Below, one piece after another: positions 11,396 through 43,888 of a stretch of DNA of 64,000 bases. Positions within the stretch are counted from its first letter, which is position 1. Every line of letters begins with the position of its first letter. The notes under the pieces were generated by a model, which worked only from the letters and a program-made list of their open reading frames with translations, did not search any database and was not told where the DNA came from. The stretch comes from Nautilus pompilius. Taxonomy: Eukaryota > Mollusca > Cephalopoda > Nautilida > Nautilidae. The DNA lies in NCBI GenBank assembly GCA_018389105.1, contig JACATO010002210.1:1-64000 (forward strand), read 5' to 3'. The position numbers and the translations under genes are program-made.

Positions 11396-11398
11396 TAA

Positions 11399-11529: not shown

Positions 11530-14500
11530 CTATAACTTGCTCTCTGGTTGCTCAGGGTTTGGTCCAAGCCAGTGCTCATCTGAACAAAGAAACAGTCAAA
11601 AATAAATATTATGCATCCATGTAAAAATGTAGCAATCAACACAACCTATCTAAATGGCAGTCCTAACATTCATCTTGTTGTTTTTTTTTTTGTTAAATAT
11701 ATTGCTTTTTACACAGTGGCAGAAGTGAATCAACTTGTTGCATGAACAAAAAAGAAGGTAGTTCTTTGAAAACATGCTAAAACAACCAAACCGTTACAAG
11801 ACAAACATGCTGAGTTATCTCCCATGCCATGGTTTTCCCTGCCACATTTTAAACTAAGCAAAGAAGAGTAGATGGAACTAAATAAATGAACATATGTTTT
11901 GGTAATCTTCCCTGCCACCATCAACAAAAGTTATTTGAGTGTACTGATCTGAAAATTTACAGATGTTTTTCAGTAGGCATACTCATTGTTTTGGTTGTAC
12001 AGCAGTTTGAGGTGGTCTTAAACCTAGAAATGAATTGTTTGCTATTGTTTTTTTTACTAGCGCTTGAGCTCACTGGCCAATGAGCTATCTAAAGTACAAG
12101 TAGCAACCTTTTAATCTTCTTCCAGAGCTTAGTACTTGGTTAACAAATGCAAGCATAAGGTGGTTTGTATTGCACCATGAGAGGCCTGGCACTGCCATCT
12201 TCAACAGGATTTTCCAACAGTGATCTTAATAAACACCAGTAGAGCACACAAGCAGGCATGTATGACAAAAATTACTGGGGTAATTAATACAACATGACAG
12301 GAAATGAAATAATAAACTAAAAAAATTATATTTGCATGACCACTTACCAAGAATTCTGGCCAATACAGGGAATCTGTCAGAGCCAAAAATCATTTCTTTT
12401 TTCTCTCCTAGATGAACCACAATCGTGGGAACACCAAAGGCCTGTAAACAATGGAGAATAAGAGAAAACACGATTAGTTTAAAATGTCTACAACATTAAC
12501 AGATTCCCTCTTATGTAAGGCACTTCGGTCTTGTGTGCAAAGAAAATATGTTCAACACCAACTAATATAACTGAAGAAACAAGCATTTTTATTACACTGT
12601 TAAATGCCGTCATTTGTTCGGATGCTACAATCTCTCTCTATACATAAGTACAAAATCGGAGATCAACTAATTACCATCATTATACAAAGAGAAAGTGCTG
12701 TTTGCTCTTTCTCAGATAGGGAAGAGTGTGTTTTCAAGTTCTGAATTTACTCAAATTTTCCCTCTACATTTTGGTGACTTTTTAAATATCTGCAGTATAT
12801 AAAACATTTTCTGTTTAAATGAATTCGTACAGAAATAAGACTTAAGCTTTCTCTGCATCTGCAAAAAAAAAAGCTGGATAAAAATTAAATAAAAGCAATA
12901 TCTATATAATATTTGATGATAATAAAAAAGAAAAAAATTGTAAAAATTACTTTTAACTGAAAAAAAACAAGAAATATCAGTTGATTTGACTGATTGCTAT
13001 ATTGCCAAATATTATATAGATATTAGATGGGTAAATAAAACAGAAAAAAAAAGAGAGAGAGAGAGACAGACCAGAACAGTAGCTGTATAAAGAGAGATAC
13101 ACAAAGTATGCAAGATAATTTTGATTGTTTATCAGATTGTTCAGCCAAACAGCAAAAAAGATTTACTTCTAGAATCAAATGTCAGAGCCTCTTAAATAAC
13201 CAAAACGTAGACTGTTACATTGGTCCCAGTGCAAGAAGAAAAAGATTCAGGGTTCAATGCTAAAAGCAACAGTGAAAGTGTGTGTTTCAATGTAATAAGT
13301 TCCGCTGACTGCTAATATAATTAGTAAAACTCTACTCATTCTGGTTCCCATATAAAAGTCCCTTAGTTAGGCCCCCTTTTAGAGGGTGTGGTTCACAAGA
13401 AAGGTCCCTAGTCCATCAATATTCATATTTTCTCACTCGGTCTTATATTCTCCAAATTTTCTGTTGGATGTCATAGTTGCCAGTCAGAAACAAGATAGTA
13501 GACGAGGCTAGGAGGATGGTTAAAAATCAGGGCCAAACTAGTACAGAAATATTCTGATAATAGATATTACCTTAAATGAAGTTGCCAAAGAGTTTGTAAA
13601 AAAAAGGGGGAGAGAAAAATCAAACGCAACTTTTTGGAAGACTTTATTTAAACTTGTTATCTACATGTTTATTTAAAGTTTATTACTGTATCTCTTATTA
13701 TATTACTGCCTTCAAATGAAAACTTTTGTATAAATATTTTCAATTTTAATTAAATTGCATATTTATTTATTATTAATTACTTTAAAATGATACTAAAAAT
13801 GTTATAAAAATTCTGGAATGCAAATATCTTATCCTCATTTCAGTTATGAACAATTTAAGTTTCAGTAATAATAAACCACAATCTCAAACACTCCTTGAAA
13901 TATAAGTTTATTTTTTTGAAATTACATAATAAAAATTCATTGAATCCAGTATTATTGTCAGATCTGACCTAAAACTTGTTCAAAAGTTTGCGAGTAACAG
14001 AAAAGATATTTTGGCATTACATGGACGTGTTACTGAAAAATTCAACGATCTCTTAATAAAATCACTGTGACGTGTATATTCAATACTGAAACGTTTTCTC
14101 TATTACTCTCAAGGCTTCGAATAAGTGTTAAGTCACATGACCGCAGAAATTTTAATTCAACAACTGAAAAAAAAATCTATCTTTTGTCTTTATAGTTAAA
14201 ATAAACACTCTCAATATGTCCTTATTATCTCTACATCCTGCCAGCAGACACTTATTGATAATAACTAAGGGTCTTATGACCACATGTTTCCTGTTGGGTG
14301 GCTCTTTGAAAACCATGATGACTCATAACTACCCTGATCCTAGAAGAGGTCACTAATGAACTGTTTTTCATTCTGACTGTCAGCCTGATTAGACTGTAAT
14401 TTTGGAGTGCGCTCTGCTCCTGTAAAATATCTCCCACCATGTATTTATGAGAGTAAGTCTGTTGATATCCATAAGACTATGAAAAACTGAAGAAAGTTCA

Positions 14501-17500
14501 TTCACTACCTATAACTGCATATGAAGACAAACATAACAAATGCAACATTGTACATACTATTTTCCGGTATGAAACAAAACTGATGATTTTTCAACAAAAA
14601 TCCAAAGAATAAAGTGATCCAAGCTGAAGGGAAAAAAAGCAAAATTTTTAAAAACAAATTGATGTTGCTTCAGCTTCATGTTCTACTTCATCTACTAGTG
14701 ATCAGCTATTTACGCCAATATAACCAAAATCAAGACTGAAAGATTTTCGACAGTATCCAGAGTAATTCCAAGGTACCATTTTGCCAAAAGATCAAACAGT
14801 AAACATACAGAAATGTAGTATGATCTTGTTCTGTTATCCATGTCGACAAGTATCAAAGCATTCAATTCAAGGTAGCGGTAAACCAGAAGAAGCATTCACA
14901 AAATATGGCGTCGGAAATGAGGAAAAAATGCATTATAACAATGTCCACAACACGAAAAATGTAAAACTCATTATGATTCAGTTAACTGATTAAAACTTTT
15001 GGTGTGAAAAAGGAAGACTGAGTTCCTTGAAGATGCTCATAGAAATTTTACTAGCCTGTGTTACTTGGCTCAACAAACTGAGCCAGTTGCTCAGATGAAG
15101 ATGAAAAAATGATCCTGATCTCAGGATGGATGGAGCAAAAATCTAATTGGCTTTCACCATGGATACCATGAAATTCTCAGTCAGTTTGCTTCAGATGTCA
15201 GAATCACTCATTATTATGTTTTTCTTGCTGATGAAACAGCTGGTGCCAGCATAACAAAGCTGATGTCTTTATGTATGTGAACTGTTGGATTATCTGGAAG
15301 TATGCAAGTTAATATTAGACTATATTCATCAAATCAATGTGATCCAGTCATCTTTACTGTGAACAAAGATTTCTTATTGTGTTTTGGCTGTAACATCAAA
15401 AATTGTAGATTCATTGCTTTGATGGCATCAACACTCTTCAAGAAAAATTCAAAAAAGCTCTCATTTTGAAGAGGAGGAAACCTGAGCAATAACTGTCCAT
15501 TGCCAAATGTATTAAATTTAGCCATTCAAGACTATTTCTGGAAAATCTCTTATTATGAAATTTTAGCATTGATACAGAAATCATCATTTTCTATGAGATT
15601 CTCCAAAACTTGTGGCAACAGTTCAAAAACCTTTCAAAATCTGCTGAAATGTCCTCAAGTACATATTCAGCCATTGTGTCTTACTTGTTTCACAGCTAAA
15701 TTCCATTCATTAAAAGTAATACAATCACAGTTATAAATCCTACCTGAAGTCTTGGAAACTATACAAGAACAGTCATGTGATACCCTTGTCAAATGTAAAG
15801 CAGTGAGCTTTCAAGAAAAGTTGCAACAATTGTGTTTTTTCAAATCCTAGAAAACAACCTTGAGAATTTTAAAAATTACTGTTAAGACCAGTAAATTTAT
15901 CAAGTCTAAAAGAATGTCATCTGGGAGTGTAAAATTTGTGGAACATACAGCTAAAGAACTTGTTTGTCTGAGAGATAACTTTGACTCTATTTGGGATATA
16001 GCTGTTTCAGAATCTAAAATGACTGCATACAAATGATCCAAAGCTATCCCAAAAATAAATTGAAATATTTTTTTTGCCATTTTTATAAGTCCTAGGTCCA
16101 CAAATTTTGAAACCTGAAAGATTATTATCAAGTTTCATCCTCTGAGACTGTTAACACGACTATCAATTTAATAGAATAATGTAAACAAATAAAATGAGAT
16201 CTACTTTGATATCAATTAGAAAGCTGTTATTGTCTTCATCCTTTGAGGTGGTGAGGTGGTATTGAAATTTGATTTAAAATCTGTTTGAAAATCCTTTTTC
16301 AATGATTTAGATGAGTTCAAAATACAATTTCAACTCTTGGATTTAAAAAATCTTCCTCAACTCAGATGTATCTCTACCATCAGTGAAATCATACAGGTCC
16401 TCAAAGAAAGAGAAGTAAAAGTTACAATTCCACAAATTTGGTAACTTTGTAAATTGTATTTGCTATCATTCACAAACACAGTTGTTCCATGGAGCTCTAT
16501 CAGCAAATTGTGAGGAATAAAAAAATCCTTGTGCTGCACTACATCACAATAAAAACCCAACCATCTCTCATTTTAACATCGTATATAATTGTTGAAAAAT
16601 TTGATCTTAAAAACTTGTGAATTATTTTATTTCACATGGTAATACTAAAAGATGTAATGCATTTACTTTATTGGATATGTAAATAAGTACTTTTATATTT
16701 ACTCATCTTTTTTCTCCATGTGGTAATGCACTTTAAAATATTTACGAAAACAGACTCTTTTCATATTTCTACTATTTGGTCATAATTCTACAAAACATTC
16801 TTTCTGAAAGTTTCAAGATACTGTTGATTTCAAGCAGAAACTTTAAATATGCATTCTAGATGCCTGGCGATTCAGACACAAAGACCACATTATATTAAAG
16901 ATATATGAAGCCCTAAAAAATCAATTTTAGAAGAAAATTGTAAAGGTAGATTGGTTCTCGAATATCAGTAGGTGGTCATAAGTATAAAAGTTAGTCTTAA
17001 TTGAACATTATTCTTCAAACCTGCATGCTGATGTCAGCACATACAGCATCCACCAGAGAAAATCTCTGGTTTCAGTTAATTGAACCTTTCTTCCTTTCTT
17101 CCATAAGTCAAGTATGAGACATCACAGAGAGCAAAGAGATCCAATTGGCCTCAGTTCACATCCTCCTAGACGGAGAAATAGTGCACTTGGTAGACTGCCA
17201 AGTCACTTCAAGGTGGAGATTTGAGCAGTAATTGTCACCAGGAGTTGTCAACATCAAATGAACCTCACAAAAGTAATTGGACATCAGGAAATGATTTTTT
17301 TTTTAAAGTAATTCTGCAGTATCTGCCTGGAATACTTCACCAAAACCAGTTGGTGGAAGCAGCAGGCTAAAATACTTTTCAACTAGGTAAGTGCATACAT
17401 TTTGATGAAAGCAGCTTCGGTGTAAATTTTAGAAACTACCTGCCCTTCTGACGTTCTACATTTATATCAAGTGGTCACATTAACATGTTAGAAATTAGAG

Positions 17501-20500
17501 TGCCATTGTTGTCGACATTGGCTTGAAGTGAGCTACCCAACTAACAGCAGGAAAGGATGGATGTCTAATAAAAAGGCAGCGTATACAAAGTGTCTCTTCA
17601 TGTAATATATTTTTAAAGAGTAAAATAACAGCTGAACCAATTCAAATTTATGGTCACCACCATCAACCAGAATTTCATTTTACAATGGGAAAGCAATCAC
17701 TTACCCCGTGTTTCAGAGCTTCTGATGTGTAACTTCTCAGCCTATCCTTCACAGCATCACTTCTGATTGCGGATATAGACTTTTGGATCAAACTATCACT
17801 GACATCTGCTTTTCGTGCAGCCTGCAATCCCAATGAAATCATTAAAAATTATAGAACCTCTCTACTTCTATAAAAGTCTCAGGTAAAAGATTCATTTTGA
17901 CTCTCATGAGTAAATAAATTGAAATTAAATTTCTTATGAAAAACTTGCTGTCATAACTCCAGCCTTGAAAGGCTTCTGGATTTCCCAAGAGTTAATAAGC
18001 CACTGCCCTGTCAGTTGTTAGCTGATGCAGGTAAGTGTGATGATTTCAAGCACCTAGAGAACCTTCATAATAACAATCTACATAATCTAACAGCTTTACA
18101 TAAAAGAATTTATTTGCTGTCTCTGATAAAGTTGTTCCTTGTATGGTCTGATTCATTCAAAATGTTAAAACCACAGATTTGAACTAACACGCACTTCCCC
18201 TGTGATTTATCTGTTATGACCAACTACCATGATGTAATCTCTACTTACCAGGCATGCTAATTGTTATTTGTATAGAATTTTAATAAGAATTATAAATTAA
18301 ACAAACAACAAGCAATAATGCAAAACATGGCTTAGCCAACTTCAATAGATTTTATTCATGCAATATTGAATCAAGTAACTCAAAAATGTGACATTTTTAC
18401 ATGGTGATCAGAACTATAGCTGGTTTTCATTACCATAAAAGCAATAGAGAAACAGTCACACCTGTGGATAGTTATGAGATGCTTCTTATTCCAACAAACA
18501 CTGGTTCTCAAGTTTTGCCAGACAAGAAGAGAAGTGTTGGCTCCTTCAGGTTACACAGCAGCAAAAATTCTTAAGACAAACATATCAGTTCATCTAGAAA
18601 CTTAGAAAGTTGAAATCGTAATAAAAAACAAAAAAACCACCACACACACACACACACACACATACATATATGATGATTCTGCAGGTTAGGCAAAGAATTT
18701 TGGAGATGCAGGTTCAGCACAATCCACAAGGTTACATGAGATCTGTGTAAGAAGAAATTATGTTAGATCACTTGTCCTGAAGCTGAGAAGGGTTAATCAA
18801 AGTCTGAACAAAGAATCATCATTTGTGCTGGACAGTTAATAAATTGTGGAGGAAAACAGTACAACAGCCATTTTATTGTCTCTGCAATCAATTTTTTTTT
18901 CCAGATAGATAAAGTCAATGAACTAACCTCAAAAAAGCTTTCATCTTTTGTAATGTCTTCATCCTAAAAAAAGAGAAGAAAAAAAATACAATACAATCAA
19001 TCAAAAATAAGTAAACCAACTCTGACACAAGCAATAAAAATAAGTTGTAATTGTTCACTTAAAAAAGAATCTGTTTCTTTCTCTTTGTAGCAGGCACCAC
19101 AGATCCATCAGGTTACAGATATGATCTCAAAATAATGTATAAGCTACTCATCATTTAAGCATTATTCATCTCTATTCATCTGTCCACCAAATAACAGATC
19201 AATTCTTGATTTATCTTTTCTTCTTTTCATCTGTTTTGACTGAAAATTGCTCTACCGATGCAGTCACATCCTTTAGTAAATCGTTGTACTTTAGCAATGA
19301 CATCTCAGGTGTATTCCTCTTGAAACTTCAGATTTGTCATCATATAAAAAGCCCTATAAGTGACTGGTTCACCATTAAATAAAACTATACAAAAAAGTGG
19401 AAAACGGTAAATTAAAGTTTAGCTTTAGTTGCACTGTCAAGAGATTTGGAGATCTTGTTTACCCTGTTGTGTATCCTTAGCCAGAGTTCTCGTGAGAGGG
19501 CTTCAGTGTGCTGTGGAGTGACCATGTCAATGGATGTCAGGAAACGCTGCGCTTGCAGAGACCCTTTGATGAACATCACTTCTGCTGGGTCCTTTAAAAT
19601 CATTGTAGAAAACCACATCAATACACTTCTAAGATGTACAGTAACACCAAAAGTCCACAAAAACTAAAAGTATGCATTCTTTACATATAGGTTTTAATGA
19701 CACATTGAAAGAATTCTGCAATATATTAACATTATGAACACATTTATTTATTAGTTCTATCTATCAGTACACTGTGTAACTGGCAGAAACAAATTGATTT
19801 TCTGGCCCCTTCTGACAGACTCATTTATCAGTAATTAGTGTTCTTTGGATCAACATCTTATCTTACAACTACAATTAGAAACAAGCATTTGGATACAATG
19901 CAAATTTAATTGGTTGATATTTTTAAAAGTTTAAATATGAAGACACGTCATGAAATAGTCTAAGTAAAATTAAAACATGGACATTAGATCAACTCATCTT
20001 GGTCACATCAATTCAATAGTTAAATGGGAAAATACAGAGGCAGAGTTTCTGTTCCTTTGAAAGTTTTGTCATGCATCACTGTAGCAAGCATGTTAAAGAG
20101 GAACAACAACATTATAGGCTTGTTATTAGCAAGTAGCTATGGAATTTCAAATAGCACATCATCTTCTTATCACAAATAGTAGCTAAAACTTATTCTTTAA
20201 AAACAAATTAGTCATGTACAATGACTTAAGCAAAATTGAAAATCTTTTTGTGTAAGGGAGAAAACATCGTCTGAATGCAAATTTAGATAGATAATTGATG
20301 TGTCAAGCAGGAAGTTGTATGCAAGTGTTATGCAAATGTTTAGAAACAATGATGGAAAACCAGGTGGGTGGCACTATATGGGCATGTCGGAAGCTATATA
20401 TGCAACTGGTTGTTCCTCATCAAAAAGGCTGCTCTTTATTTATTTATGTAGTCACAAAGAACATGGCCCAGGTGAATCTGCAATTGGTCAATGTTTGCAG

Positions 20501-23284
20501 AAAACTATTGACATTGTTAGTGGATTCAGCCCGCAAAACAGTGTGAAAAGCAAAAGTTGTGCATCAATGGTCATTGAGCAACTTTCTACTTGAACAACAC
20601 AACAGCTGAATGTAAATTTTGTTTAAATGTAAAACTTGTATAATCACATAGATTCTCCTTGGCTTGAACAGGTGAACGCATCAACCACTCCCTAGCGATT
20701 GATAAAGTAACAACCATAAGCTGTCACATAGCATCCGAAGCCAAGATCATATGTAACTGTTGGTAACCAAGTGATCAAAATGCTTAGCAATTACTTCACA
20801 TAATTAGTAAGCATTTTAAAATAATCTGTAAGTAGATATCCACAAAGGATAAAATTAAATAAACAATACCATTAACAAAAACCATTGTTTCTTATTTTTT
20901 ATCAAATGTTATTTGGTAAACAAAAATTAATTTCATTTTCTCCAGGATGAGAATATTAATACTGCTCATTTGTATACTAATGAAAATCCCCATGATGGAC
21001 ACACTTGAGTCTAATGTTGAAGTGTTTTAGGTTTATTATAACCTTAGAAGTTTAATATGTATTCATAAAATTCAAGTGTGAAATAGGTTATGGATGAGGT
21101 AAACTCTGAAATAGATTAATGTGGAAGTTAGGCTTGTCTACACTAAAATGGCCCTAATCATTTTATAGCAAACATACATCTGGTATAAATATTGTCACAG
21201 GGCTGCGTACAAACTCTCCCCATCCCAGTATTCATTAAGCTGAAAAGTAATATCTAACAAAGATACACACAAGAGAATTCTTACAGATGGCAGTTTCAGT
21301 GGAACCTGGAAGTATTCACTTTCCCTTATCACATCTTTATTTAAATATTCAGCCTTAACAGGTAGCATTCCAGGCGGCTTATTACCTGTAACAAACAGCA
21401 AAAATTCTTAAAGAAGAATTTTCCAAAAGTCTTAAATTAAAATGACTCTTTGCTGAACATATGTTGCAGTTAAACTCTACCTAAAAAGAATGATTCATGC
21501 TAAAGCATTAACTTGACTAATGTGGAAAAGTATACATCATTTGTGAAATCAGATGCCTTTTTTGAGGAGTTGCCCTCTTTTATTTCTTAGATGTCACATA
21601 TTTTTAAAACAAGTGGGCACCAAAAGCACATACAAAAAAATAAATGAATATGTTTAAAGATGAAGTACAGTAGTCAGAAAATTCAAAACCTACAAGCCCA
21701 GTCAAAGCACACATTTTACCATAGAGATAAAAGTCTTATGCAAAGAAACATGTTCCACAATTAGACATTTCAAAAGATTAAAATGGTAGAAGAAGCATCA
21801 TGGTGTGAAAAGGATTCACTCATGTCAATTTTGTTTTTGTCTGTATTGAATGTTCCCTATGAAGGCACAATGAGTGATAAAAGTCTGCAGTAGAGTCAAG
21901 GTAATGCCTTCTCTCTCTCTTCTCTTGCTGCCAAAGTTTTTTTATGGTGACCTGTATTAAAATATACCTCCAAATTTGTTCAATCTGGAAGGTAATGGCA
22001 TAAACCTGAAGCTGCAGACACACCAAAAGTTGGTGCAGGCCTTTCTACACAAATCTTCCTGTGTTAGTTAGCATGGAATCTGATTACATCAGTGTGAGAT
22101 AACCCATCAGTAATACATACTGACCTCCCACTAAAGAACAATTACTGCTGATAGAAAAAGATGAAAAACTGCATTACATGCTTTGTTGTAATTTAATTAT
22201 AACCAGTATTACTATGCAGCAAAGGCATTTAGTTAAAATAGTACATAATAGTGGTTATAGCAATTTTATTGCTAATTATTCTTCTACTTAAATATTCAAA
22301 TCTATTGTTGGCTTCAGATTATATTTTTAACCATTTCAAAAAAGAACTAGAATTATACATATCCTTGGATAACTATGATTTCTTTTGATTTTCTATAAAT
22401 TTAGACACAAAATTTTTTAAAAAGAAAATTTTAATAGATTTCATTTAAATATAATTATTTACTATAAATTATTTTGGTTTTGTTTTTCTCATTCACTAGA
22501 CTGACTGCTTATTGTTGCTTTAAGTAGCAACAGTGCTAATGTTTTGACAACAAAGAAAAGAGATCGAATCAATCAAACCATGTCAATGATTAGGTATCAC
22601 CTGAGTGCTCATCAAATGGTTACAGAATTCATTCTCTAATATACTTCATTCCCCATAAAATTGAAATTTACTATCACGACATGCCTGTTTCCTTCATGAT
22701 TGCTCCAAGAAATACTGGCTTCAGCATCAAATCAATATTCCAGTAAGATCTGTATCTGCACAGAGTCTGAAATTAAATATTTTCAGAAAATACAATGATC
22801 AGTCAGCTGTGTGTGTGTGTTCTTTTAGAAAGGCAACTTTTACATATAAGGGGAATGTACCCAACGTTTCCTTGTTTTTTTTTTCCTCGCCGTGTTACTT
22901 CCCCTTGACTCCCCGCCATTACAGGGTTTAAAGTATCTAAGATGTCAAGATAAGCTTAAATTTTTTTTAAAAAATCAACCACTCCAACAACATATAGTAG
23001 TGTGGTATTTAAATAAAGGGAAGTACCGATACGACTGGACCGCTTATTTCACCAATTTGTTAGGCGTTTTACCAGTAATAAGCTATGTATCGGTAAATGC
23101 TACTTACTGTAACAGTACTATTACTAGTTTGGAAATTGTCACTAATCCAAAAATTTAATTCCGACCAACTTAAAAACCGTATATGTGTGGGGTGGTTCAG
23201 ACATATCTCAGTCTTACCTCAAACGCCAGCCAAGAATAGGGAGACACTACATCATAGTAGAATTCGATTAGTTTTACATTCCAT
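11530..23284 (-). CDS. GSTK1: Glutathione S-transferase kappa 1, eight exons
   Basis: DsbA-like thioredoxin-fold enzyme that conjugates or reduces substrates with glutathione in mitochondria and peroxisomes (family knowledge). Exons in transcript order: 23284-23218, 22766-22685, 21385-21285, 19591-19463, 18963-18928, 17821-17705, 12441-12348, 11579-11530. Phases agree across all seven junctions. Exon 1 gives IEFYYDVVSPYSWLAFE with the catalytic Ser region, exon 3 GNKPPGMLPV, exon 4 KGSLQAQRFLTSIDM and SRELWLRI, exon 7 AFGVPTIVVH and FGSDRFPVLARI, exon 8 HWLGPNPEQPESKL. The C-terminal SKL is a canonical type 1 peroxisomal signal. Total is about 225 residues, the usual family length. Two oddities: exon 2 ends at a GC donor (GCATGT), and exon 1 has no in-frame ATG; the nearest ATG (23284) is out of frame by one base in an A-run. 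A noncoding or further 5' exon is possible. Confidence 0.9.
12442..17704. other. GSTK1 intron 6 (5.3 kb)
   Basis: The intron holds the hAT-type relic (separate entry) and otherwise AT-rich filler. The first 180 or so bases next to exon 7 (12442-12620) are about 96% identical to the same place in the second copy (30503-30680). Confidence 0.6.
14700..16560 (+). mobile_element. hAT-type transposase relic in a GSTK1 intron
   Basis: Plus-strand translation, across several stops and frame changes, gives pieces in the order of a hAT transposase of the ZMYM/DUF4371 kind. These are IQGSGKPEEAFTKYG (about 14870), the catalytic-aspartate context YYVFLADETAG (15211-15243), an LCLTCF and SLKV segment (about 15676-15716), AKELVCLRDNFDSIWD (about 15950-15996), and a C-terminal dimerisation-like stretch at 16300-16560. 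It lies antisense to GSTK1. Terminal repeats were not found, and the limits are approximate. Confidence 0.6.
18639..18663. repeat. (CA)n microsatellite
   Basis: A run of about 12 CA dinucleotides inside a GSTK1 intron, followed by 'tacatatatg'. Confidence 0.9.
20300..20593 (+). other. Unrecognised 97-codon open frame in a GSTK1 intron
   Basis: It starts at ATG 20300 and runs 97 codons, antisense to GSTK1 inside intron 3. Its composition is less biased than most frames in this AT-rich DNA (WHYMGMSEAIYATG, LLFIYLCSHKEHGPGES). The 'LLFIYL' stretch in an alternating hydrophobic context vaguely recalls a thioredoxin-like UAS domain, but I cannot support that. A second frame overlaps it at 20295-20546. 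It may be a captured exon or transposon fragment. Confidence 0.25.
21733..22262. repeat. Near-identical intron block, copy 1 of 2
   Basis: This block in GSTK1 intron 2 matches 34566-35095 with only about seven differences in roughly 510 bases by eye. The neighbouring exon 3 pair differs at about one base in six. Both blocks lie at the equivalent place in the two GSTK1 copies. No terminal repeats are seen. Confidence 0.85.
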
Positions 23285-23572
23285 TTGTATACAGTCGAGT
23301 TACCGCCATTTTTGTTTGAATAACTTCACACGAGTTACCGGCCTTACCTTGGCTAATTATTTCTATTGCGTCTATGTTGGGGGGAACAATGGCTCTGAAG
23401 AGAGAGACAAAGTTATTAATTAATTAAAAGTAGTAAAAAAAATACATTATCAGTATTTTTACGATTATATACCTTGAATTTATAACTTATGTAGAATAGA
23501 AGAATAATTTCACTTTACATTTACTGTGAACATCTGGGGATATTTTTAGCCAATGAGGTTTGTTTGTAACAA

Positions 23573-23574
<2 letters not shown>

Positions 23575-23619
<45 letters not shown>
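23575..23619. repeat. (AAT)n microsatellite
   Basis: About 15 AAT/TAA units between GSTK1 and the NUDT8 remnant. A matching array lies at 38109-38149 in the second unit, so it probably predates the duplication. Confidence 0.95.
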
Positions 23620-23620
<1 letters not shown>

Positions 23621-23711
23621 TTCCACGCCAATTTTGTGTGTATGTGTGTGTGGATATGGTTTTTATATATTATTTATCCGTCCTTACCTATCATTTTATT
23701 ACTTTATTTGT

Positions 23712-23870
23712 TTTTGGCTATGATGTATTGAAACCTTCAAAAGAAAACGGCTACCTGGGGAGCAATGCCACCTTTTGCCAAACAGGGTAAGCAAGATCTC
23801 ATCAGATCTGTATTTTTAAACAGAAGTTTGTGAATTAAGGAAGTACACAACTCAATTGTAAAGTTTTTGA
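23712..23870 (+). pseudogene. NUDT8 exon 2 remnant
   Basis: Homologous to the 3' end of NUDT8 exon 2 and the start of its intron (39380-39540). It has 'caaacagggtaagcaag' with the donor site, then 'agatctgt', 'cagaagttt' and 'aaggaagta' in the same order. Translation gives WGAMPPFAKQ against WGTMPPLTNR, with a one-base indel before the donor. The Nudix box, exon 1 and exons 3-4 are absent from the next several kilobases. This is what is left of the NUDT8 copy belonging to the intact GSTK1 gene. Confidence 0.8.
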
Positions 23871-24249
23871 TACTATCAGTACGATATGCAGTATTTATAC
23901 GTGTGTTGTTGTCTCGTAAAGGATTTTGTCATACAACTAGTGAAATGCATTAAAATGTTTTCTCTTTAGTTTGAAAGATGATTTCTTGTTTTTACATATC
24001 ATTTTATCTGTTTGTTTATATGGGAGGATAATGATGAGAGATAGTGAGAATGCAGTTGTATGGAAGGAATGAAAACAACATTAAATATAATACTTTCTTG
24101 AGAGAAGAATCAGAAGAACTGCTGCAGAAACTGACTGGTGATCTTCAAACAAGAAAGAGAAAAATGTTTTTGGTCATAAACATTAAAAAAAATAGAAACT
24201 ATGGTTGTGAGCAAGTCAGAGGTACTCCCAAAATGTGTGATTAAAATAC

Positions 24250-24781: not shown

Positions 24782-24849
24782 CTTGAGGTAGTTTGGCTAA
24801 AGAAACAAGAGACAGGAAGAAATGAAGATCAGACTTTTGACCCCCAGAT

Positions 24850-26290: not shown

Positions 26291-26296
26291 CGCTAG

Positions 26297-33176: not shown

Positions 33177-34565
33177 CACCAGCACCAACCAGAATTTCAT
33201 TTTACAATGACAGTAATCACTTACCCCGTGTTTCAGAGCTTCTTATTTGTAACTTCTCAGCCTTATCCTTCACAGCATCACTTCTGATTGTGGACATAGC
33301 CTTTTGGACCACACTATCACTGACACCTGCCTTTTGTGCAGCCTGCAATACCAATCAGAACTATTACAAATTATAGAATCCATCTAACAGAATCAGCACT
33401 TCTACAAGAGTCTCAGGTAAAAGAGTAATTTTCACTCTCACAAGTTAGACTGAAATTGATTTTCTTATGAAGAACTTGAAATTATAATTCTGGCCTACAG
33501 CCAATACATTCTTAAATTAATCTGGAATCATTCCTGGTTTCAAAAGAACTGGTAAACATATATCAACCCATAGTTTATGAAAGTTCAACAATAAAGAATC
33601 AGTGGTACTTGGTGATAAAGCATCTTTTCATTTGCGAGATGTCTGTTCTGTGGTTTTTCTAGTCACTGGGTGGTGCTTCTGCTAACAGCAAAAACTCTTC
33701 TGACCAAAAACAGACTTTAAAATCATTGTAGAAAACCACATCAATACACTTCTAGGATGTACAGTAATGCCATCACTACGATGGTTTAAATCAATTTAAG
33801 CCACCGTATTAATAAACTTCTTTGATACAATTGAAGTTTAGAACAAAGAAATATATTCCTTTATCTGATTAGTAGATTAGCATCTGTAAGGGGGAAAATC
33901 ACAAATGGTATATATTAGAAATGTTGTTGGCTATGTCTAGTTGATGATGAGTTTGCAATTTCAAGTCATGACATAAACATTTATCTTTGATTCTGACCTT
34001 TTACTGTTTGAATTTCTATGAGAGTTTTGTAATGTGTTATTGTAGAAAAAAATGTCACAGAGGAACAAAAACAACATTAAAGCTTTGTTATTTGTGGGCA
34101 GATATGTGGTTTAAAATATGTCACATTCTCTTATCACAAACCACAAACAAAGTGTTTTTTTGAATAATTAAAATTGCCTCCCATTATTTACTATGCCAAA
34201 CTGTACTAAATTATCAAGAAAAGTTAGGAACAGGTACTTACAGATGGCAATTTCAGTGGCACCTGGTAATATTCACTTTCTCTTATCACATCTTTACTTA
34301 AATATTTAAATTTAGCAGGCACCAGGATTGGTGGCCTTTTACCTGTAACACACAATAAGAATTCTCAAAAGAGAAATTTTCTTAACAATGCAAAAAGTAG
34401 ATATCACCTGTAATATTAAACTGTTTAGCAGTCAACCTTTTTTTAAAATGTTATATGGTGTGAAAAAAGTGTGAGGAACTTCAAAAGCAGAAGGCATAGA
34501 TATATATGTAAAACAAAATCCAGAAACCATTGAAGTGAACATAAACCACACATTTCATCATCATT

Positions 34566-35095
34566 CTTATGCAAAGAAACATGTTCCACAATTAGACATT
34601 TCAAAAGATTAAAATGGTAGAAGAAGCATCATGGTGTGGAAAGGAATCACTCATGTCAATTTTGTTTTTGTCTGTATTGAATGTTCCCTATGAAGGCACA
34701 ATAAGTGATAAAAGTCTGCAGTAGAGTCAAGGTAATGCCTTCTCTCTCTCTTCTCTCGCTGCCAAAGTTTTTTATGGTGACCTGTATTAAAATATACCTC
34801 CAAATTTGTTCAATCTGGAAGGTAATGGCATAAACCTGAAGCTGCAGACACACCAAAAGTTGGTGCAGGCCTTTCTACACAAATCTTCCTGTGTTAGTTA
34901 GCATGGAATCTGATTACATCAGTGTGAGATAACCCATCAGTAATACATACTGACCTCCCACTAAAGAACAATTACTGCTGATAGAAAAAGATGAAAAACT
35001 GCATTACATGCTTTGTTGTAATTTAATTATAACCAGTATTACTATGCAGCAAAGGCATTTAGTTAAAATAGTACATAATAATAGTTATAACAATT
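34566..35095. repeat. Near-identical intron block, copy 2 of 2
   Basis: Partner of 21733-22262. It lies in the pseudogene between the exon 3 and exon 2 equivalents, in the same orientation, with sharp loss of similarity at both edges. Confidence 0.85.
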
Positions 35096-36990
35096 TTATA
35101 ATCTAGTATATTTCTATTTAAATTATCAAATCTATTTTTGTTTATAAAATAGGGAATACTATTGTTTGCTTCAGGTTATCACTTTAACCTCTCTCCCTTT
35201 TTGTAGAAACTAGAATTATACATATCTTGGGAAAACTGATTTTTTTTTAGGTTTCATTAATTTTTAACAAAGAAATTTTTAATGATAATAATTTTGATAG
35301 ATTTTATACAAATAAAATTATTTATTATTAATTACTTTGAATGAAAGAATTCCAGTATTATACTATTAGTATCATAGATATTAAACCACAAAATTTTGAC
35401 ATAAGTGTGTAGGTATGAATGACTGTTAACCATCTCAAAGAATACAAAGCTGCTGTTTTCTGAACTCCTTTACTTAATTATGGTGAGTGAAATCTAAGCT
35501 ATGCAATGAAAGAAGACAGACAATTAATGCGAAGAAAACAATCAAACTAACTTGATGTTTATTTTCATTGTTAGCCTAATTTAACCTTTCTGTCAGTTGA
35601 GTGACTGGCTAGTGTTGCCTATAAATTGAGACACTGCTCTTTCCTGATGTTCAAAGGGGGAATACTCTAGAAAAGCAGTTTCAGTATAGAAAATGAATGG
35701 ACTTATTCATTAGACTGGTTACTAAAACGTACCTCGAAGAAAGTCAGAGAAATGAAAAAGAATGCGATTTCAACAGTTTGCAGAAACAAATCTGCAGTCA
35801 TCTTTATGTGGTGAATTGTTTACCAGTCATATCTACCTTCAAACACAGTCTTGAAAAAACTGTTGTTTCATTCTCTAAATAAAAAACAAAAAAACAAACT
35901 TATCCTTAGCAAAATGACATTGATTCCTTAATTAGTGGGGCTTATAAATTGAAGAATTAAAATATGAACTAGGTTTTCTTTGTATCTGCTGGGGAAGTTT
36001 ATGGCAGTTTTGTTGAGAAGGTTGGAAAAGGGCTTTGTACAAAGGTTAGGGTTACAATAAGGACAGAGAAAGGATTCTTCAACAAAGTTTTATATTCCAA
36101 ACAGAACAATAATAACTCACAAAGGTGCAATTTATGTTGTGTGAAGTGATGTTACCATACCTGCAACATCTGCAGATGACAGATGATATAGCCTGCATAC
36201 ACCCAGCTCACTTTGGAAATTGGTATGGAAATATCTTGTAAAACTCAGACAACCAAGTAGCATCAACTGGCTTTGGAAATACTTGCAGAAAAAGTGATCT
36301 GTTAACAGATATTTTTAAAGACGGTTAAAATGTTTGCCTGTAATTAGCAAAGCTGAGATAAAAGCCAAAGTAGGTAATTTAATTTTATTTTCACATTTTA
36401 AAGGTAATAAATAAATAAATAAATAAACATAAATAAAAGTTCCATGACTTCTGAACACCACTGGGTATTTATTCTTGTGTATCTGCTTCCTCTTACCTAG
36501 ACCAAAATCTTCAGTGATATGGTTTGTACAAACTGTTTTTTGGGATGTGCCAAAAATTACTCATGACTTGTTAATCTGTAAATGAATAACACCAGTGCAG
36601 ACTATTCGAAAACTATTTCCACAAATCACAACAAAAAAGATTGTTAAAAACTAAAGAGATTCGTCCTTCCTTTTCATTCACATTTTCCATTTCAGTCCAC
36701 TCAACACCATAATGAATGATGATGATAATTAATCTGCCAGACTATGTATGTAAAATGTTAAAATGAAAGAAAAAAAAAAACAAAAGAACAAAATAAATCA
36801 GGGCAGATAGCATCTGAGTTCTTATCAAATGTTTGCAAGATTAGTTCTTTAAAAAACTTCAATCCTCAAAACCACTTCAAATTGAAATTCCCCATCACCA
36901 ATATACCTGTTTCCTTCATGACTGCTTGAATAGATAGATACTGGCTTCAGTAACAAATCAATATTCCAGCGAGACCTGTATTTGCACAGT

Positions 36991-37302
36991 CTACAAAATA
37001 TTTTTATTTTTAAAAAAAAAAATAGATTAAATTTTAAATAACAGATAAAGAAAAAATGCAGAATTCAGTACATCACCGTTATATTGTTAATATATCCAGC
37101 AGAAAAAAATATCACTTAGGTGCTGCAGTATTTTCTTATGGAAACCTTTCTCCTCCATCCTCTTTCCTCTCCACACACTCGAATGCTTTCCTTTTGTGAT
37201 TCTACTTGCACTTTTTCGCAATAACATTTAAAAATAATTAATTAATATATTTTTTGTCAGTTAGATTTGTATTGCACCACCATTCTGTTTATATTACACT
37301 GA

Positions 37303-37369
<67 letters not shown>

Positions 37370-38108
37370 GCTATTGTTACTATTTTTGCTGTGTTACCTC
37401 CCCTGGCGGGGCAGGGCTGCAGAATGTCCAACAACACGACCTGTCGAGTAAGGAATGGCACTGACAGGAAACCAGATACCCAAGCAAGACTTCAAGATAA
37501 TTTACAGTTGTTTAATGTCTCGGTCTCTTCTTCTTCTCTTTTTTTATTTTTCTTTAACAAAAAACAAACCCCGAACCAGTCGAAAACATGGAGGCGGTCA
37601 GACCCGCGTCCCGGCTCGCCAGCCGATTTAGGCTGCTGCCTCGCAGTTGTAGATACTATACATCGTATTACTGCTGGGGGTTGGCATCCAAAATCCCATT
37701 TCTTTCAACTTAAATGAATGATCTAAACATTTAATGTGGTTCCAGTGGGGGGGGGGGATACGACACCGTAAAGCAACTCGAGTAATTTCCCACACCGGCC
37801 ATTTTGTTCGTTTCAGAGTTACCTACCTTGGTAATTTTATCCTCTATTATTTCGCTTTGCATCAAAGAAGTGAAACCGCAACTCGCCCGATTGTCATTGG
37901 ATGGATGCACCACTTAAAGACAAGCGATCTGTATTTTTAAAAAAAACGAATATCTACTTAAACCTCTGTCTTATTTATTTACGATAGAAGAATAATTTTA
38001 CTTACAATTTATTATATATGAAGATGGTTTAGGGAAGGAGACTAATTTTTCATGTGACCGCCTAGTTTAAGGCTTTTATCTTTGAAATAAATAAAAATAA
38101 ATTTCGTA

Positions 38109-38149
<41 letters not shown>

Positions 38150-38540
38150 GAAAACTCAAGTGGTTGAATACTGAAATCAGGGCCATGATTCTTTTAATTT
38201 TGCTAACCCAGATGCCAAATCCACCAAGCTGCACTTTAAGCAAGTGGTCAGCCTACTGCTTTTGACTTGCAGAGTCTAAACTGCCAAGTTCCAGAAATCT
38301 TGAGAAAACCTTAAAATATGGACTAAACAGAAACCCTATTAAGACTAATCTGCAGTATTAGGCATTAGATCTAGCCCTTATCTCAACGCATATGTCAAAT
38401 GATTCAGTTCCATTTCAAAAAAGATATTTTAGACATAATGATATCGAAAAGAAAACTTGCATAAATAACTAGATAATTTTCTCATTTTTTTTAAATTTTA
38501 ACTTTCAGGAGAAGATTAGTGTGGCTCAAGAATTCTAAGA
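36991..38540. promoter_or_regulatory. NUDT8 5' region with microsatellites
   Basis: Lies between the broken GSTK1 copy and NUDT8. It holds (TTA)n at 37303-37370 and (AAT)n at 38109-38149. 'gccattttgttcgtttcaga' followed by 'gttacctaccttgg' (37799-37832) resembles 23306-23355 beside the intact GSTK1 exon 1, so this was probably the shared divergent promoter region. A 'tttcag' at 38503-38508 could be the acceptor of the exon holding the NUDT8 start, which would place a noncoding first exon upstream. No core promoter element is recognised. Confidence 0.35.
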
Positions 38541-41500
38541 ATGAATAGCCTGCTCCATTCTTGGAAGTTTTATAATTTCTTTGGACTTAGTAGACATCAA
38601 ACTTGCTCAGCAAAACTAGAAGATGTCTTTGGAAGATGGATACAGTGTAAAAGAACTTTTCCAAAGAGAGCAATTTGTGTTGGTTCTTTCAAGATGCATG
38701 AAGTGATCGAGACGGTCCTGTCCGATGCCAGCAAGAAGAGATTTTCCCAAAGCCTCGGTACAGTAAAGCCAGCAAGTGGGATAAAATTAAGGCATCACCG
38801 TAATGGGGCTGTCCTAGTCCCTTTGTGTTTAGTTGACGGCAAACCATCAGTCCTTTTTACAGTGCGGTCTCAGGTTATTATGAGACATCGAGGGGAAGTC
38901 AGGTGAGTCTGGCTTTGAAATTCAAGCTTTGACATTATCCCAAATAGTCAGGTGTGTCTTTAATATAGGATGGTACTTTTTTCAGCCAGGTCTAACATTG
39001 AATATCATAAAATTACTTCACTGAAGATTTTCTTTCCCTTTTTTAGTTGTAAGCCTGGTTTTCTATATTATTTGTCTGCCTTTACATATCCTTCTCTCTT
39101 TTTGTTTATTTTTGCTCATAGTGGTGAAGATGCAAGGCTATTAAGTATCAGCTAAATTTTGGTTATTTTATTTGAATTTCTTCAACAATATAAATTTTGT
39201 TTTTTTTTAAAGCCAGTAAATAGAAAAGGGAAAGGCAGTCAAATGAGAAGATAGTATTATTTCCATTTTTGTGCTTTGTTTGAATTTAATTTCAGTTTTC
39301 CAGGTGGTAAAATGGATGAGAATGACACTGATCTTGTCCAGACTGCACTTCGAGAAGCACATGAAGAAGTTGGGATACGCCCTGAAACCGTGGATGTCTG
39401 GGGAACAATGCCCCCTTTGACAAACAGGGTAAGCAAGTTAGTTTTACCTCAAGAGATCTGTTTTTAAGCAGAAGTTTATGAAGTAAGGAAGTATGCACCT
39501 TCCTTCAAATCTAGTACTGGGAAAAGCTACTAATTGTAAATTGTTGATACTAGAAGTAGGAGCTGGTACTTATATACATACACATCCACAGTGGGAATCT
39601 TCAAATGAAACTCTATTGATATAGCATCATCATAATGTATCCAGCCAGGTTTCATTTGAACATCCTTAATATAAATTTACTGTCCAAATCGATGCCTTGT
39701 TATTATGATTTATTGTATTTTTGTGTTTTTCATATCACTATTTATTTTTGTCTAGGATTTAGTTTTTGGCTAAGTGTTCTGAAATCCTTATTGGCAGGTA
39801 AATGACAACCCACTGATTTGGAGAAGCATTTTCTATAGTTTTCTGGTAAATTTGTACAAAAATACAAAGATATTTAATATATTAAATGCTAGAGAAGAAT
39901 AAATAAATAAACAAAATGAATTTTACACTTTTAAAAATAGAGAACAAACAAACAAACATCTTCATTTTTCTAAATAATGGTTTACTTTCATAAGAGCAAG
40001 AGTTAGTAAAATAATATAATCTAACATCTTTAACTTAAAATTAATTGTTTTGAACAATAGTACCTACATTTAACACATCTTTCAAATAATATACCTAAAA
40101 TATTTGTCTCCTCAGAAACATTAAAAAATTAGAAGATCACAAAGTGAAGTGTTTTTAAGTAGTTAGAAATGACTGTAAATAAATAATAACTTTATATCAG
40201 AACTAAAGAAAATATGCTTATTGTATTTGGTTAATACATGGTCTTCCTGTGCTTGTATAGCTCAGCTGCTCGAGGTTATGCATATGTGTTTTTTATAAGC
40301 TTTGCTGACCATGTTTTGGATACTACTAGACAGAATCTACATATCAATTGAACAGATTAAGGTAACCCAAGAAAACCCTATCACCCCTTGAGCACTTGGT
40401 TATTTGGCATGGCGGGTAACCCTAACTTCTCCACATTCTTGGCCTGACAGATTGCAGCTTTACAAAATTGGAATTTTAACACTGATCTCATGACCACCTA
40501 GCATTACACGACAATATTTAGTGAACAGCTGAATGAAGTTTGTTTGTTTAATCTTGTCACAGCAACAATATAGTTAGGTGTGTTTCTATGAATTTGTTCT
40601 TCTGAATGATTTTATTAAATTTTGTGAATACAAATTTAGAAGGTGTAAACATCTTTGAATCGTTTTGTATCACCTTTATAATTTGGGTGACAGGATAGCA
40701 CAGTGGTACACCAATTTCTTCTCGTCTCTAATTGAAAGGGTTTCTGTTACAGAGGCTTCATACTTGAGAGGTGCCTCTGGTTCCCATAAATGCTGTGAAA
40801 GCAGTATCAGAAGAACAAGTAACATAATGACTAAAGAAATAGTTATCAAGAGATGAAATCTACTTTTAAACTTTTGCATATGTACCTCATGGGTTTCATC
40901 TGTTAAAAATGTGAAATGGGGTTTTGCTACAGTAAGATTTCTGATGCCAGATATTCTGTATTTTTCTTGTCCAGTTCTCTCTCTTAACTGTTACTTTTTT
41001 ACCATAGATTTTCCAGACAAAAACCCATCTTTCCTACAGAAAATCTTTGTTGTGGAGTAAATTGTAATATTTTTTTTTTTTTTTTTTTTTTTGCTTTTTT
41101 ATAATAGAAAACAACAGCTTTTACTTTTTAGGTATCAAGACAGATGATGTTGGATTTTATTACATATATTTTCTGAAAACATCTTTTCAGCTAATTGAAG
41201 AAATAACAATAGAGAACACAGATGGCTGGTTATTACCGTTAGTTAGGCTGATGACCTAAAACATTTTTATGCTGTTTTTTATTCATATTTGTAGATGAAA
41301 CATTTTGTTTCCTAAAATAAACTCATATATGCAGTGGAGTTTAGAAATGGGACTTCCATGCAAAAAAGAACACTGCAATCTACCTTTTCAAAACTATTTT
41401 GCTCATGAAGATTTATTATGCTAGGAAAACAAGATGTGAAAAATTAGATGAGCCAAGTTTCAGAACATAAAACCATCAACTGTAACTTGCTACCACTTTG

Positions 41501-43888
41501 AGATATGAGATTGTTCCATCAAATTCTTCATCTTCCATGCAAATAACTGCTGCATTTATTTTGGGCATACAGTTTAGTAATGTTTCCAAACATCACCTTG
41601 TAAGTGGTCCCCTCTCCCAGTCTTGTTGCAAGTAGTTCTGTTGCTGATTGGCTTTATTAAGTCGTCCTGATTCTTCCATAGCAAAGTATAGTTTTGCGCT
41701 TTATGTGCTTCACATCATTGCTGCAGCTTTAAACCCATCACCTATCAAATGATTCCCTGATGGAATATCACGGCATTGCAAAACATTTTTTTTGTGGGAA
41801 TCTTATGAATTTTTATCAAGTCACCTGCCATTTTCACCGCTCTGCTTAACTGTAGGACAAATGCAGCTCTTGTACATACTTTTCTTTGGTCATTCTCCTA
41901 ACATATTGCCATTGCTTAGAACCAGATATTTTAAACATCCTCTCATCTTCCACAATATAGTTCTCATGTTTAGCCCAGGCCAGTCACATGTTCTTATTAC
42001 CTTGTCTGGTGTTTTCTTGCTGATATTTTACCAATAAATCCAACCTCTCTTAACTGTCTTTTGGTTGATGTGTTAGCTGTTGCAGGAGAATTGTGGTTGA
42101 CAAGTCATTGGATTTCTATCAAGGGTATGCTTTAGACTTTTAAACCAGCAACCCATTGCTCTAATTGGTTTATTCATCATCCATTTAGGTTTGGCAGAGC
42201 CAGTCGACTTCATTCCATAAATCCAGTTTCCCTTTTTGGAGTGGCCAGCCTTAAGAAGGGCCATGATAGATATTCTTGTTTTGTATTAAATGTTTTTAGG
42301 TGCCATTTTCATCTGCCAAAAACAAAACAATACCATGAGTTCTGTTAACATTTATACAAAAGCACAGTACAGTACGAGATAACAGTTATTTTAATCATTA
42401 GTGAAAAACAGCATTGGATGAACATAACCTCATGCTTTCAGCATGAACTAAATTTAACATTCATAGAAATAAAATGGTGTCCATAAGATAACGCCATCAC
42501 AATTAATGGTCTGTATGTTCTGATACATATTTCATTGGAATTTTATTTATTTATTTATTTTTTGTATGAGCTGCTTATAATTTTGAATGTCAGAACATAC
42601 ATATATTTTTTCTTTTATTAAAGGGTGGATTGCAGGTGACAGCTGTGGTTGGAAACATTGGATCGATAGATATTGACCGGGTTAATTTTAATAAAACAGA
42701 GGTAATGCCTGACAGAATCAATCATAATGTAATTACATTTTATCAAAAATCTAATGGGAAATATTTACATTGGAAATTAAATACATCTTCACACTTTGAA
42801 ATAATAAAATAAGTAAATAATTATTATAAATATTTTAAATGGCTTGTATTTACTGGTTCCATGGCCAGGTTTTGCTATCTAGGACTGGCCTTGAAATAGT
42901 GTAGGTAGACTGTAAAAGTAAGCAAATATTGTGCATGCAAGTCTCAATAAGCAATACACACACAAACAGATTCTGGATCTTTTTAGGTGGAAGCATAGCC
43001 CTGTAGGCTTTAATTTTACTGCATACAACTATTCAGAAAGCAGATATTTAAGCTGGACACATGATTATGTCTGATAAGTAGATAATTAAACTAGGGACAT
43101 GCTTCTGTCTGGTACAATAAATAAACTAGGCAAAGACTAGGGGTTTTGACCCCCATCCCCTGCTATTATACATGTGGCTGAATGAGGCACTAATTCTGCA
43201 TATCTTACATTATACAAATTATTCATGCAAGAAAACTGAAAAGCTAAAATATGGTACAATACATCTATCATAAAAGTTGTCCTTTGCAAGTAATTTTTCC
43301 AAAAATGACAAAACTATATATACATTGGCTTTAAAAATCTAACTCCACTTAACAAGCATATGAAAAAAATATCTTAAATTACAAAATTACAAGACAGTCC
43401 ATTGATTTGTTCTGTACTTTAAAAAGTCAGTTTAAAAACAGCTTGCTATTTCTTGTGATAGCATTTGTGCATTAACCACAAAAAACAAACCTGAGTTAAG
43501 CAACATTTTGTTGTAATATTAGTATTTTATAGATTAAATTTTAGTACCCCTTTTCTAACTTTTAATAACCTTTTGATGCTAACAGAAAGATATAAATGTG
43601 CTGAAATAATTTAATTCTAAATTTTTTTTTATTTAAGAACATTCATTAATATGCTTTTCTAATTTTTATTGGCAACAGGTTGAACTAGTTTTTTCAAGGA
43701 CTATAGCTTCCTTATGCAGTTTGGATAACATAAAGTCTACCCAGTTTCGGAACAGCAAAGGCTACACTATACCTGTATTTCTTGGAGAGCACAGAATTTG
43801 GGGACTGACTGCAGTAATGCTGCATCTAGTTCTCCAGAAACTGGTGCCAGAGGAGTATAGGTTTAAGCTGATTCATCAGCCAACATGA
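38541..43888 (+). CDS. NUDT8: NUDT8, mitochondrial Nudix hydrolase (CoA type), four exons
   Basis: Nudix hydrolase of the NUDT7/NUDT8 type, which cleaves coenzyme A and its thioesters at the diphosphate, in mitochondria for NUDT8 (family knowledge). Exons 38541-38902, 39296-39428, 42624-42701 and 43679-43888 join in phase to 260 codons without internal stop. The ATG at 38541 is the first in the frame; the N-terminal stretch is basic and lacks an obvious acidic cluster, which suits a mitochondrial presequence. Residues before the Nudix box (VLFTVRSQ, HRGEVSFPGGK) fit the CoA-specific signature. The box itself has REAHEEVGI intact. The C-terminal part (GYTIPVFLGEHRIWGLTAV) matches the NUDT8 tail. 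Exon 1 joins exon 2 as R-S-F-P-G-G-K. Candidate polyadenylation signals are at 44720 and 44860. Confidence 0.93.
40685..40760 (+). repeat. tRNA-derived SINE head (fragment)
   Basis: 'gatagcacagtggta' (about 40694-40708) fits the A box of a tRNA promoter; the B box is degenerate or absent. It lies in NUDT8 intron 2. Confidence 0.4.
41067..41092. repeat. Poly-T run
   Basis: A run of about 24 T in NUDT8 intron 2, possibly the tail of a retroposed repeat on the minus strand. Confidence 0.7.
41560..42270 (-). mobile_element. Possible pogo/Tigger transposase relic
   Basis: Minus-strand translation over several stops gives a CWFKSLKH segment and then KTPDKVIRTCDWPGL, which resembles the first catalytic-aspartate region of pogo-type DDE_1 transposases. 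No terminal repeats were found. It lies in NUDT8 intron 2, antisense to the gene. Confidence 0.35.

What the first reader, a model, noticed from the sequence alone, without database searches (positions are those of the whole stretch)
11530..43888. Tandem-duplicated GSTK1/NUDT8 pair with complementary gene loss
Two adjacent units each held a minus-strand GSTK1 and a plus-strand NUDT8, head-to-head. In the left unit GSTK1 is intact and NUDT8 is reduced to part of exon 2 (23712-23870). In the right unit NUDT8 is intact and GSTK1 has lost three exons and carries indels. One working copy of each gene thus survives, but from different units, which split a linked divergent pair and its shared promoter.
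Basis: partly seen in the sequence, partly recalled or inferred. Interest (0 to 1): 0.72.

Follow-up and report, generated by a model that had tools for sequence, protein, structure and literature searches.

The report
Duplicated gene pair, one survivor each
In an unnamed eukaryotic genome, probably an animal's, two neighbouring genes that pointed away from each other were copied side by side long ago, and one copy of each has since decayed, so the two genes that look usable now sit in different copies about 15 kb apart: a tidy but ordinary outcome of gene duplication.

Summary
Two collinear direct units, L (11.3-23.9 kb) and R (29.2-39.5 kb), each carry minus-strand GSTK1 and plus-strand NUDT8 sequence. 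Aligned parts are mostly 63-81% alike, too diverged for two haplotypes. L-GSTK1 has eight exons open over 226 codons, aligns without gaps to rat GSTK1 and ends in SKL. R-GSTK1 is a pseudogene: exons 4-5 absent, exon 1 a relic, indels in exons 2 and 6, SKL lost. R-NUDT8 is complete (four exons, 260 aa); L-NUDT8 is a relic of about 100 nt. Genome searches found no other copy of either gene.

Corrections: L-GSTK1 has no in-frame ATG as assembled, so 'intact' is not proven. Homology stops in NUDT8 intron 2, so L-NUDT8 may have been cut short at birth rather than lost later. A shared promoter is not shown. Overall: tandem duplication with complementary decay, close in kind to tandem-duplication-random-loss, but leaving gene order unchanged.

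The parts
23218..23289 (-). L-GSTK1 exon 1, part in frame with the domain (upper end chosen by me, as there is no in-frame ATG); SPYSW motif
22685..22766 (-). L-GSTK1 exon 2; donor is GC (gcatgt)
21285..21385 (-). L-GSTK1 exon 3
19463..19591 (-). L-GSTK1 exon 4
18928..18963 (-). L-GSTK1 exon 5
17705..17821 (-). L-GSTK1 exon 6
12348..12441 (-). L-GSTK1 exon 7
11530..11579 (-). L-GSTK1 exon 8, ends SKL stop (peroxisome signal type)
23755..23852 (+). L-NUDT8 relic: 3' part of exon 2, donor and start of intron 2
   Evidence: 78% to 39398-39500
37753..37800 (-). R-GSTK1 pseudogene, exon 1 relic
36907..36990 (-). R-GSTK1 pseudogene, exon 2 with indels
34242..34342 (-). R-GSTK1 pseudogene, exon 3, still open
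33225..33342 (-). R-GSTK1 pseudogene, exon 6, 1-nt insertion and a stop
30409..30502 (-). R-GSTK1 pseudogene, exon 7, still open
29486..29535 (-). R-GSTK1 pseudogene, exon 8, ends ESK stop (signal lost)
38541..38902 (+). R-NUDT8 coding exon 1 with mitochondrial-looking N-terminus (my reading, no predictor run)
39296..39428 (+). R-NUDT8 exon 2 with Nudix box
42624..42701 (+). R-NUDT8 exon 3
43679..43888 (+). R-NUDT8 exon 4 and stop
12344..12613 (.). near-identical patch A with 30405-30674 (11 mismatches in 270)
19592..19644 (.). near-identical patch B with 33715-33767 (1 mismatch in 53), ends at the exon 4 boundary
21734..22250 (.). near-identical patch C in intron 2 with 34565-35080 (4 mismatches and a 1-nt indel; no mismatch over 21938-22250)
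11284..23852 (.). L unit as far as homology is detected
29249..39500 (.). R unit as far as homology is detected

Best explanation
An ancestral head-to-head pair, GSTK1 (minus) and NUDT8 (plus), was copied as a direct tandem duplication reaching from below GSTK1's 3' end at least into NUDT8 intron 2. Afterwards the right GSTK1 decayed (loss of exons 4-5, frameshifts, stop, loss of the terminal SKL) and the left NUDT8 was reduced to a piece of exon 2, by deletion and perhaps also because its 3' exons were never copied. The left GSTK1 and the right NUDT8 are the only copies found in the assembly, so the order of the two genes is unchanged, but the starts of the survivors are about 15 kb apart, against about 0.7 kb between the two genes inside the R unit. 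Short gene-conversion events have recently overwritten at least three patches between the units. Shown: the homology, which copies are broken, no other copy at the search's sensitivity. Inferred: the order of events, conversion as the cause of the patches, and that the left GSTK1 is expressed and functional despite lacking an in-frame ATG in the assembly.
For: Eleven aligned blocks in one order and orientation. L-GSTK1 open over 226 codons with seven introns, 99 of 221 residues identical to human and 101 of 221 to rat GSTK1. R-GSTK1 lesions. R-NUDT8 complete, L relic only. Genome search with L-GSTK1: 11 of 11 matches lie in these two units, being 7 of the 8 L exons (exon 5, 12 codons, was not found) and 4 R exons; with R-NUDT8: 4 of 5 matches are its own exons, the fifth is a one-exon 212-aa relative on another contig that ends in SKL and so looks like NUDT7. 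Of 32 positions that differ between L and R in the compared exon stretches (two of them stops in R), L keeps the human or rat residue at 13 and R at 3, as expected if R is the relaxed copy. Near-identical patches whose match falls from 38-40 of 40 columns to 12-32 of 40 in the next 40-column step (positions); the intron-2 patch was found at only two places in the genome.
Against: No in-frame ATG in L exon 1 and a GC donor after exon 2. dN/dS between L and R is 0.69 with bootstrap 0.34-1.56, and 2.53 in exon 6 alone on very few changes, so it does not by itself show selection on either copy. In exon 6, R is as mammal-like as L (1 against 1). L-NUDT8 exons 3-4 may never have existed. The 5.4 kb between the last L match and the R unit matches neither flank better than a reversed-sequence control, so the duplication junction is not located. 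About three quarters of the L unit has no detectable match in R. No outgroup and no expression data.
Confidence: 0.78

Rival explanations
1. Truncated duplication (a sub-case of the best explanation): the copied segment ended inside NUDT8 intron 2, so the left NUDT8 was dead at birth. Only GSTK1 was ever truly redundant, and the single real loss is the right GSTK1. There was then no complementary resolution, just one useless fragment and one pseudogene.
For: Homology stops at about 23852/39500 in intron 2; the best match of 23860-29248 to 39500-64000 has E=0.021, weaker than the best of the reversed control, E=0.001; no convincing NUDT8 exon 3-4 relic at protein level, best E=0.12.
Against: The L unit also lacks NUDT8 exon 1, intron 1 and the 5' part of exon 2, which lie inside the duplicated stretch, so deletion did act there; the 5.4-kb spacer contains at least one element-like stretch and could hide a decayed tail.
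Confidence: 0.4
2. Both GSTK1 copies are broken: the left one lost its start frame recently, so the species (or the sequenced individual) has no working GSTK1.
For: No in-frame ATG in exon 1; no other copy found in the genome.
Against: All eight exons are otherwise open, and all splice sites but one GC donor are canonical; a base-call error, an unmodelled upstream exon or a non-AUG start would each explain it.
Confidence: 0.15
3. Assembly artefact: two haplotypes or a chimeric join placed side by side.
For: Some patches are almost identical, which a local mis-assembly could also give.
Against: The aligned parts mostly differ by 19-37% with many indels, and much of each unit is unlike the other; each has its own lesions. 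No third copy was found in the genome.
Confidence: 0.04
4. The near-identical patches are kept by selection (for example an enhancer or small RNA gene in intron 2) and not by gene conversion.
For: 313 nt without a mismatch inside an intron.
Against: Sharp edges, presence inside a pseudogene, no Rfam family at the gathering score in the window, no synonymous difference in exon 7 but three replacement differences.
Confidence: 0.08

Closest known systems
Tandem duplication random loss (TDRL), described mainly for mitochondrial gene orders
   Same: Block of adjacent genes copied in tandem, then one copy of each gene lost, with pseudogene remains still in place
   Different: Nuclear, intron-bearing genes; the losses happen to leave the original gene order, only the spacing changes; NUDT8 may not have been fully copied
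Divergently paired genes with bidirectional promoters
   Same: Head-to-head GSTK1 and NUDT8, about 0.7 kb between the GSTK1 exon-1 relic and the NUDT8 ATG in the R unit
   Different: Promoter function not tested; the surviving genes now start about 15 kb apart
Interlocus gene conversion between tandem paralogues
   Same: Near-identical patches with abrupt edges between diverged copies, uneven synonymous divergence by exon (0 to 0.52, from 14-39 codons each)
   Different: One partner is a pseudogene and most converted sequence is intronic; direction unknown without an outgroup
Reciprocal gene loss after duplication
   Same: Different members survive in different copies
   Different: Here in linked tandem units of one genome, not between species or subgenomes

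Membership tests
GSTK1 (kappa class glutathione transferase) | DsbA-like domain, matching solved GSTK1 over full length | tested here: met
   (L copy)
GSTK1 (kappa class glutathione transferase) | catalytic serine in SPYSW context | tested here: met
   L sequence DVVSPYSWLA at the human Ser16 position; the role of Ser16 is recalled, and an S16A mutant is named in passages of PMC10295636
GSTK1 (kappa class glutathione transferase) | C-terminal peroxisomal signal | tested here: met
   L ends SKL; R ends ESK, not met. By sequence only
GSTK1 (kappa class glutathione transferase) | translatable from a start codon | tested here: inconclusive
   no in-frame ATG in L exon 1 as assembled
NUDT8 (mitochondrial CoA diphosphatase; function recalled) | Nudix domain of the CoA-pyrophosphatase type | tested here: met
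   PF00293 1.8e-11; CoA pyrophosphatase 1nqy 8.6e-22 and NUDT7 about 2e-17; NF007980 CoA pyrophosphatase 2e-33, though 115.6 bits is below its cut-off of 134
NUDT8 (mitochondrial CoA diphosphatase; function recalled) | distinct from peroxisomal NUDT7 | tested here: inconclusive
   no C-terminal SKL here, while a separate one-exon NUDT7-like gene ending SKL exists in the genome; no direct comparison with a vertebrate NUDT8 record was made, so the name rests partly on recall
Tandem duplication random loss | both genes fully copied, then one copy of each lost | tested here: inconclusive
   R keeps traces of 6 of 8 GSTK1 exons; NUDT8 exons 3-4 have no L trace
Bidirectional promoter pair | starts under 1 kb apart and joint transcription | not testable with these tools
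   distance about 0.74 kb between the R exon-1 relic and the NUDT8 ATG; transcription starts and expression unknown

The most novel reading that the evidence does not exclude
The split is not finished: gene conversion keeps copying patches between the live and the dead unit, mostly in introns, so the pseudogene unit serves as a sequence donor or recipient for the live GSTK1, and the lost start frame of the left GSTK1 could be a by-product of that traffic; the gene pair would then be caught in the act of losing or rescuing GSTK1.
Probability: 0.1. Interest if true: 0.5.

Novelty: new member of a known kind. Interest (0 to 1): 0.3.

Why it matters
It is a clear local example of how a divergent gene pair can be uncoupled without either gene being lost, with both relics still readable, and it bears on the open question of whether shared promoters really hold such pairs together. 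The conversion patches warn that dating such duplications from single exons would mislead: synonymous divergence between the same two copies runs from 0 to 0.52 by exon (few sites per exon).

Tried and rejected
Haplotype artefact: rejected on divergence and on finding no third copy. Repeat element as cause of the intron-2 patch: rejected, found at two places only (the tool skips very common words). The same query for the exon-7 patch did not complete; exon 7 itself was found only at the two places. Structured RNA in the patches: no Rfam match at the gathering score in the window. Genome search with the DSBA family model found nothing, not even the exons here, presumably because they are too short for it; it is not evidence of absence and was replaced by the protein query. 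A DNA local alignment for the R exon-1 relic over about 1.5 kb was not significant (139 of 300 shuffles as good); the narrower 0.2-kb alignment and the protein comparison over 1.5 kb were. The narrow stretch was chosen after seeing the weak match (E=21), so the relic rests on position as well as score. A joint alignment of the two upstream intervals was poor. A literature search for GSTK1 with NUDT8 gave 4 papers, seen as listing only, none about linkage by title or start of abstract. Six further searches were seen as listings, some of them cut to the best 8 or 12; PMC2670823 and PMC3403606 as abstracts; PMC10295636 as passages. The species was not identified; the mitochondrial search meant for that (PF00115) did not complete.
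Full report
Setting. The window is the first 64,000 bases of a 217,828-base contig (C2108) in an unnamed 727.6-Mb assembly of 2558 contigs. The gene content (GSTK1, NUDT8, CFAP107, MRPS22, with introns) points to an animal; the species was not identified.

The two units. A self-comparison gives direct matches in one order: 11284-11761 with 29249-29711 (73%), 12344-12613 with 30405-30674 (96%), 13009-13379 with 32523-32887 (63%), 17622-17965 with 33144-33496 (81%), 19592-19649 with 33715-33772 (95%), 20045-20176 with 34006-34140 (71%), 21223-21486 with 34179-34448 (69%), 21678-22476 with 34515-35339 (86%), 22537-22796 with 36751-37023 (69%), 23449-23619 with 37927-38138 (64%), 23755-23852 with 39398-39500 (78%). 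These eleven lie on one chain and cover 3,245 of the 12,569 bases of the L unit; the rest has no detectable match. One search also lists other matches with E from 0.38 down to 1.4e-4, and one trivial self-overlap, which I set aside. Two of these (11073-11122 with 28978-29032, and 24144-24197 with 40081-40134, both E=0.052) sit just beyond the two ends of the chain and could extend the units slightly.

GSTK1. The left copy has eight exons between 23289 and 11530, open over 226 codons to a stop after SKL, with AG acceptors before exons 2-8 and GT donors except a GC donor after exon 2. It scores E=4.9e-36 for the DSBA domain and E=4.3e-65 against rat GSTK1 without a gap over residues 6-221; 99 of 221 residues equal human and 101 of 221 equal rat. 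In exon 1 the frame of the domain runs back to a TGA without meeting an ATG; the nearest ATGs are in other frames. The right copy keeps recognisable exons 1 (relic), 2, 3, 6, 7 and 8 of eight; exons 4 and 5 are absent, and the match to the left unit stops exactly at the exon 4 boundary; exons 2 and 6 carry indels, exon 6 also a stop, and exon 8 ends one residue early, without the SKL end.

NUDT8. The right copy has four coding exons, 38541-38902, 39296-39428, 42624-42701 and 43679-43888, giving 260 residues without a break, with a Nudix domain and similarity to CoA pyrophosphatases. The left copy is the end of exon 2 and the start of intron 2 only. Its exon 1 and most of exon 2 are missing although the units match on both sides of that gap. 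Exons 3-4 have no convincing left counterpart at DNA or protein level (best E=0.12).

Copies elsewhere. The left GSTK1 protein finds 11 matches in the whole assembly, all in these two units: 7 of the 8 left exons and 4 right ones. The NUDT8 protein finds its own four exons and one other place, a one-exon reading frame of 212 residues ending in SKL on a 3.8-Mb contig, which I read as NUDT7. The tool scores only best candidates, so distant relatives could be missed; it also missed the short exon 5 and the left NUDT8 relic.

Which copy is relaxed. In the exon stretches that can be compared, 32 positions differ, two of them stops in R; the left copy has the human or rat residue at 13 and the right at 3, with exon 6 even at 1 each. 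The overall dN/dS of 0.69 (0.34-1.56) excludes neither neutrality nor selection. Synonymous divergence is very uneven, on few sites: 0.52 in exon 3, 0.32 in exon 8, 0.15 and 0 in two parts of exon 2, 0.04 in exon 6, 0 in exon 7.

Near-identical patches. Three stretches stand out: 270 nt with 11 mismatches, 53 nt with 1, and 517 nt with 4 mismatches and a 1-nt indel, of which 313 nt have none. At the edges the match falls from 38-40 of 40 columns to 12-32 of 40 in the next step. The largest lies wholly in intron 2 and was found only twice in the genome. Interlocus gene conversion explains such edges and the uneven divergence; local mis-assembly is the alternative that I cannot exclude without reads.

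Reading. A head-to-head pair was copied in tandem; the right GSTK1 decayed, the left NUDT8 was deleted in part and may have been incomplete from the start, and one copy of each survives in different units. The order GSTK1-minus, NUDT8-plus is as before; the survivors' starts are about 15 kb apart, against about 0.7 kb between the two genes within the R unit today. Whether the ancestral interval was a shared promoter is not shown. The two units keep faintly similar upstream stretches, so each survivor probably kept its own version.

Known context. Divergent pairs are common in the fly and their conservation varies between lineages (abstract of PMC2670823); another survey found that co-regulation did not explain their preservation (abstract of PMC3403606). 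Tandem duplication with random loss is a standard model for mitochondrial gene order (recalled; listing). GSTK1 is reported in peroxisomes and mitochondria (passages of PMC10295636). That human GSTK1 and NUDT8 lie on different chromosomes, and that NUDT8 acts on CoA in mitochondria, is recalled, not tested. Only one search asked for both gene names (4 papers); from titles and abstract starts there and in six wider searches I saw no report of this linkage.

Verdict. It is a good example of a known process, with two reservations (start codon of the left GSTK1, completeness of the left NUDT8 at birth) and one addition (conversion patches).

Noticed in passing
47502-52258: CFAP107 on the minus strand (Pfam PF22595 in reading frames 48611-48946 and 47502-47960, and below the cut-off in 50463-50825) faces away from MRPS22 on the plus strand (PF10245 in 51848-52258): a second head-to-head pair, about 1.2 kb between the matched parts, close to the first.
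   Followed up: partly
26319-28158: Inverted arms of 61-71 nt, 84-87% complementary, 1.7 kb apart, around a reading frame with a weak MULE transposase match (E=0.0087, below cut-off): probably a DNA transposon inserted between the two units.
   Followed up: partly
3631-4976: Minisatellite of a 32-base unit, about 42 copies, in a G+C-richer stretch near the contig start.
   Followed up: no
L020 2018-2656: One-exon NUDT7-like gene ending in SKL on another contig, 39% identical to NUDT8 in the aligned part.
   Followed up: partly
22677-22684: GC splice donor after L-GSTK1 exon 2, while the right pseudogene has GT at the same place.
   Followed up: partly
23575-23619 and 38107-38149: A TAA repeat of about 15 units at what look like matching positions upstream of GSTK1 exon 1 in both units.
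   Followed up: no
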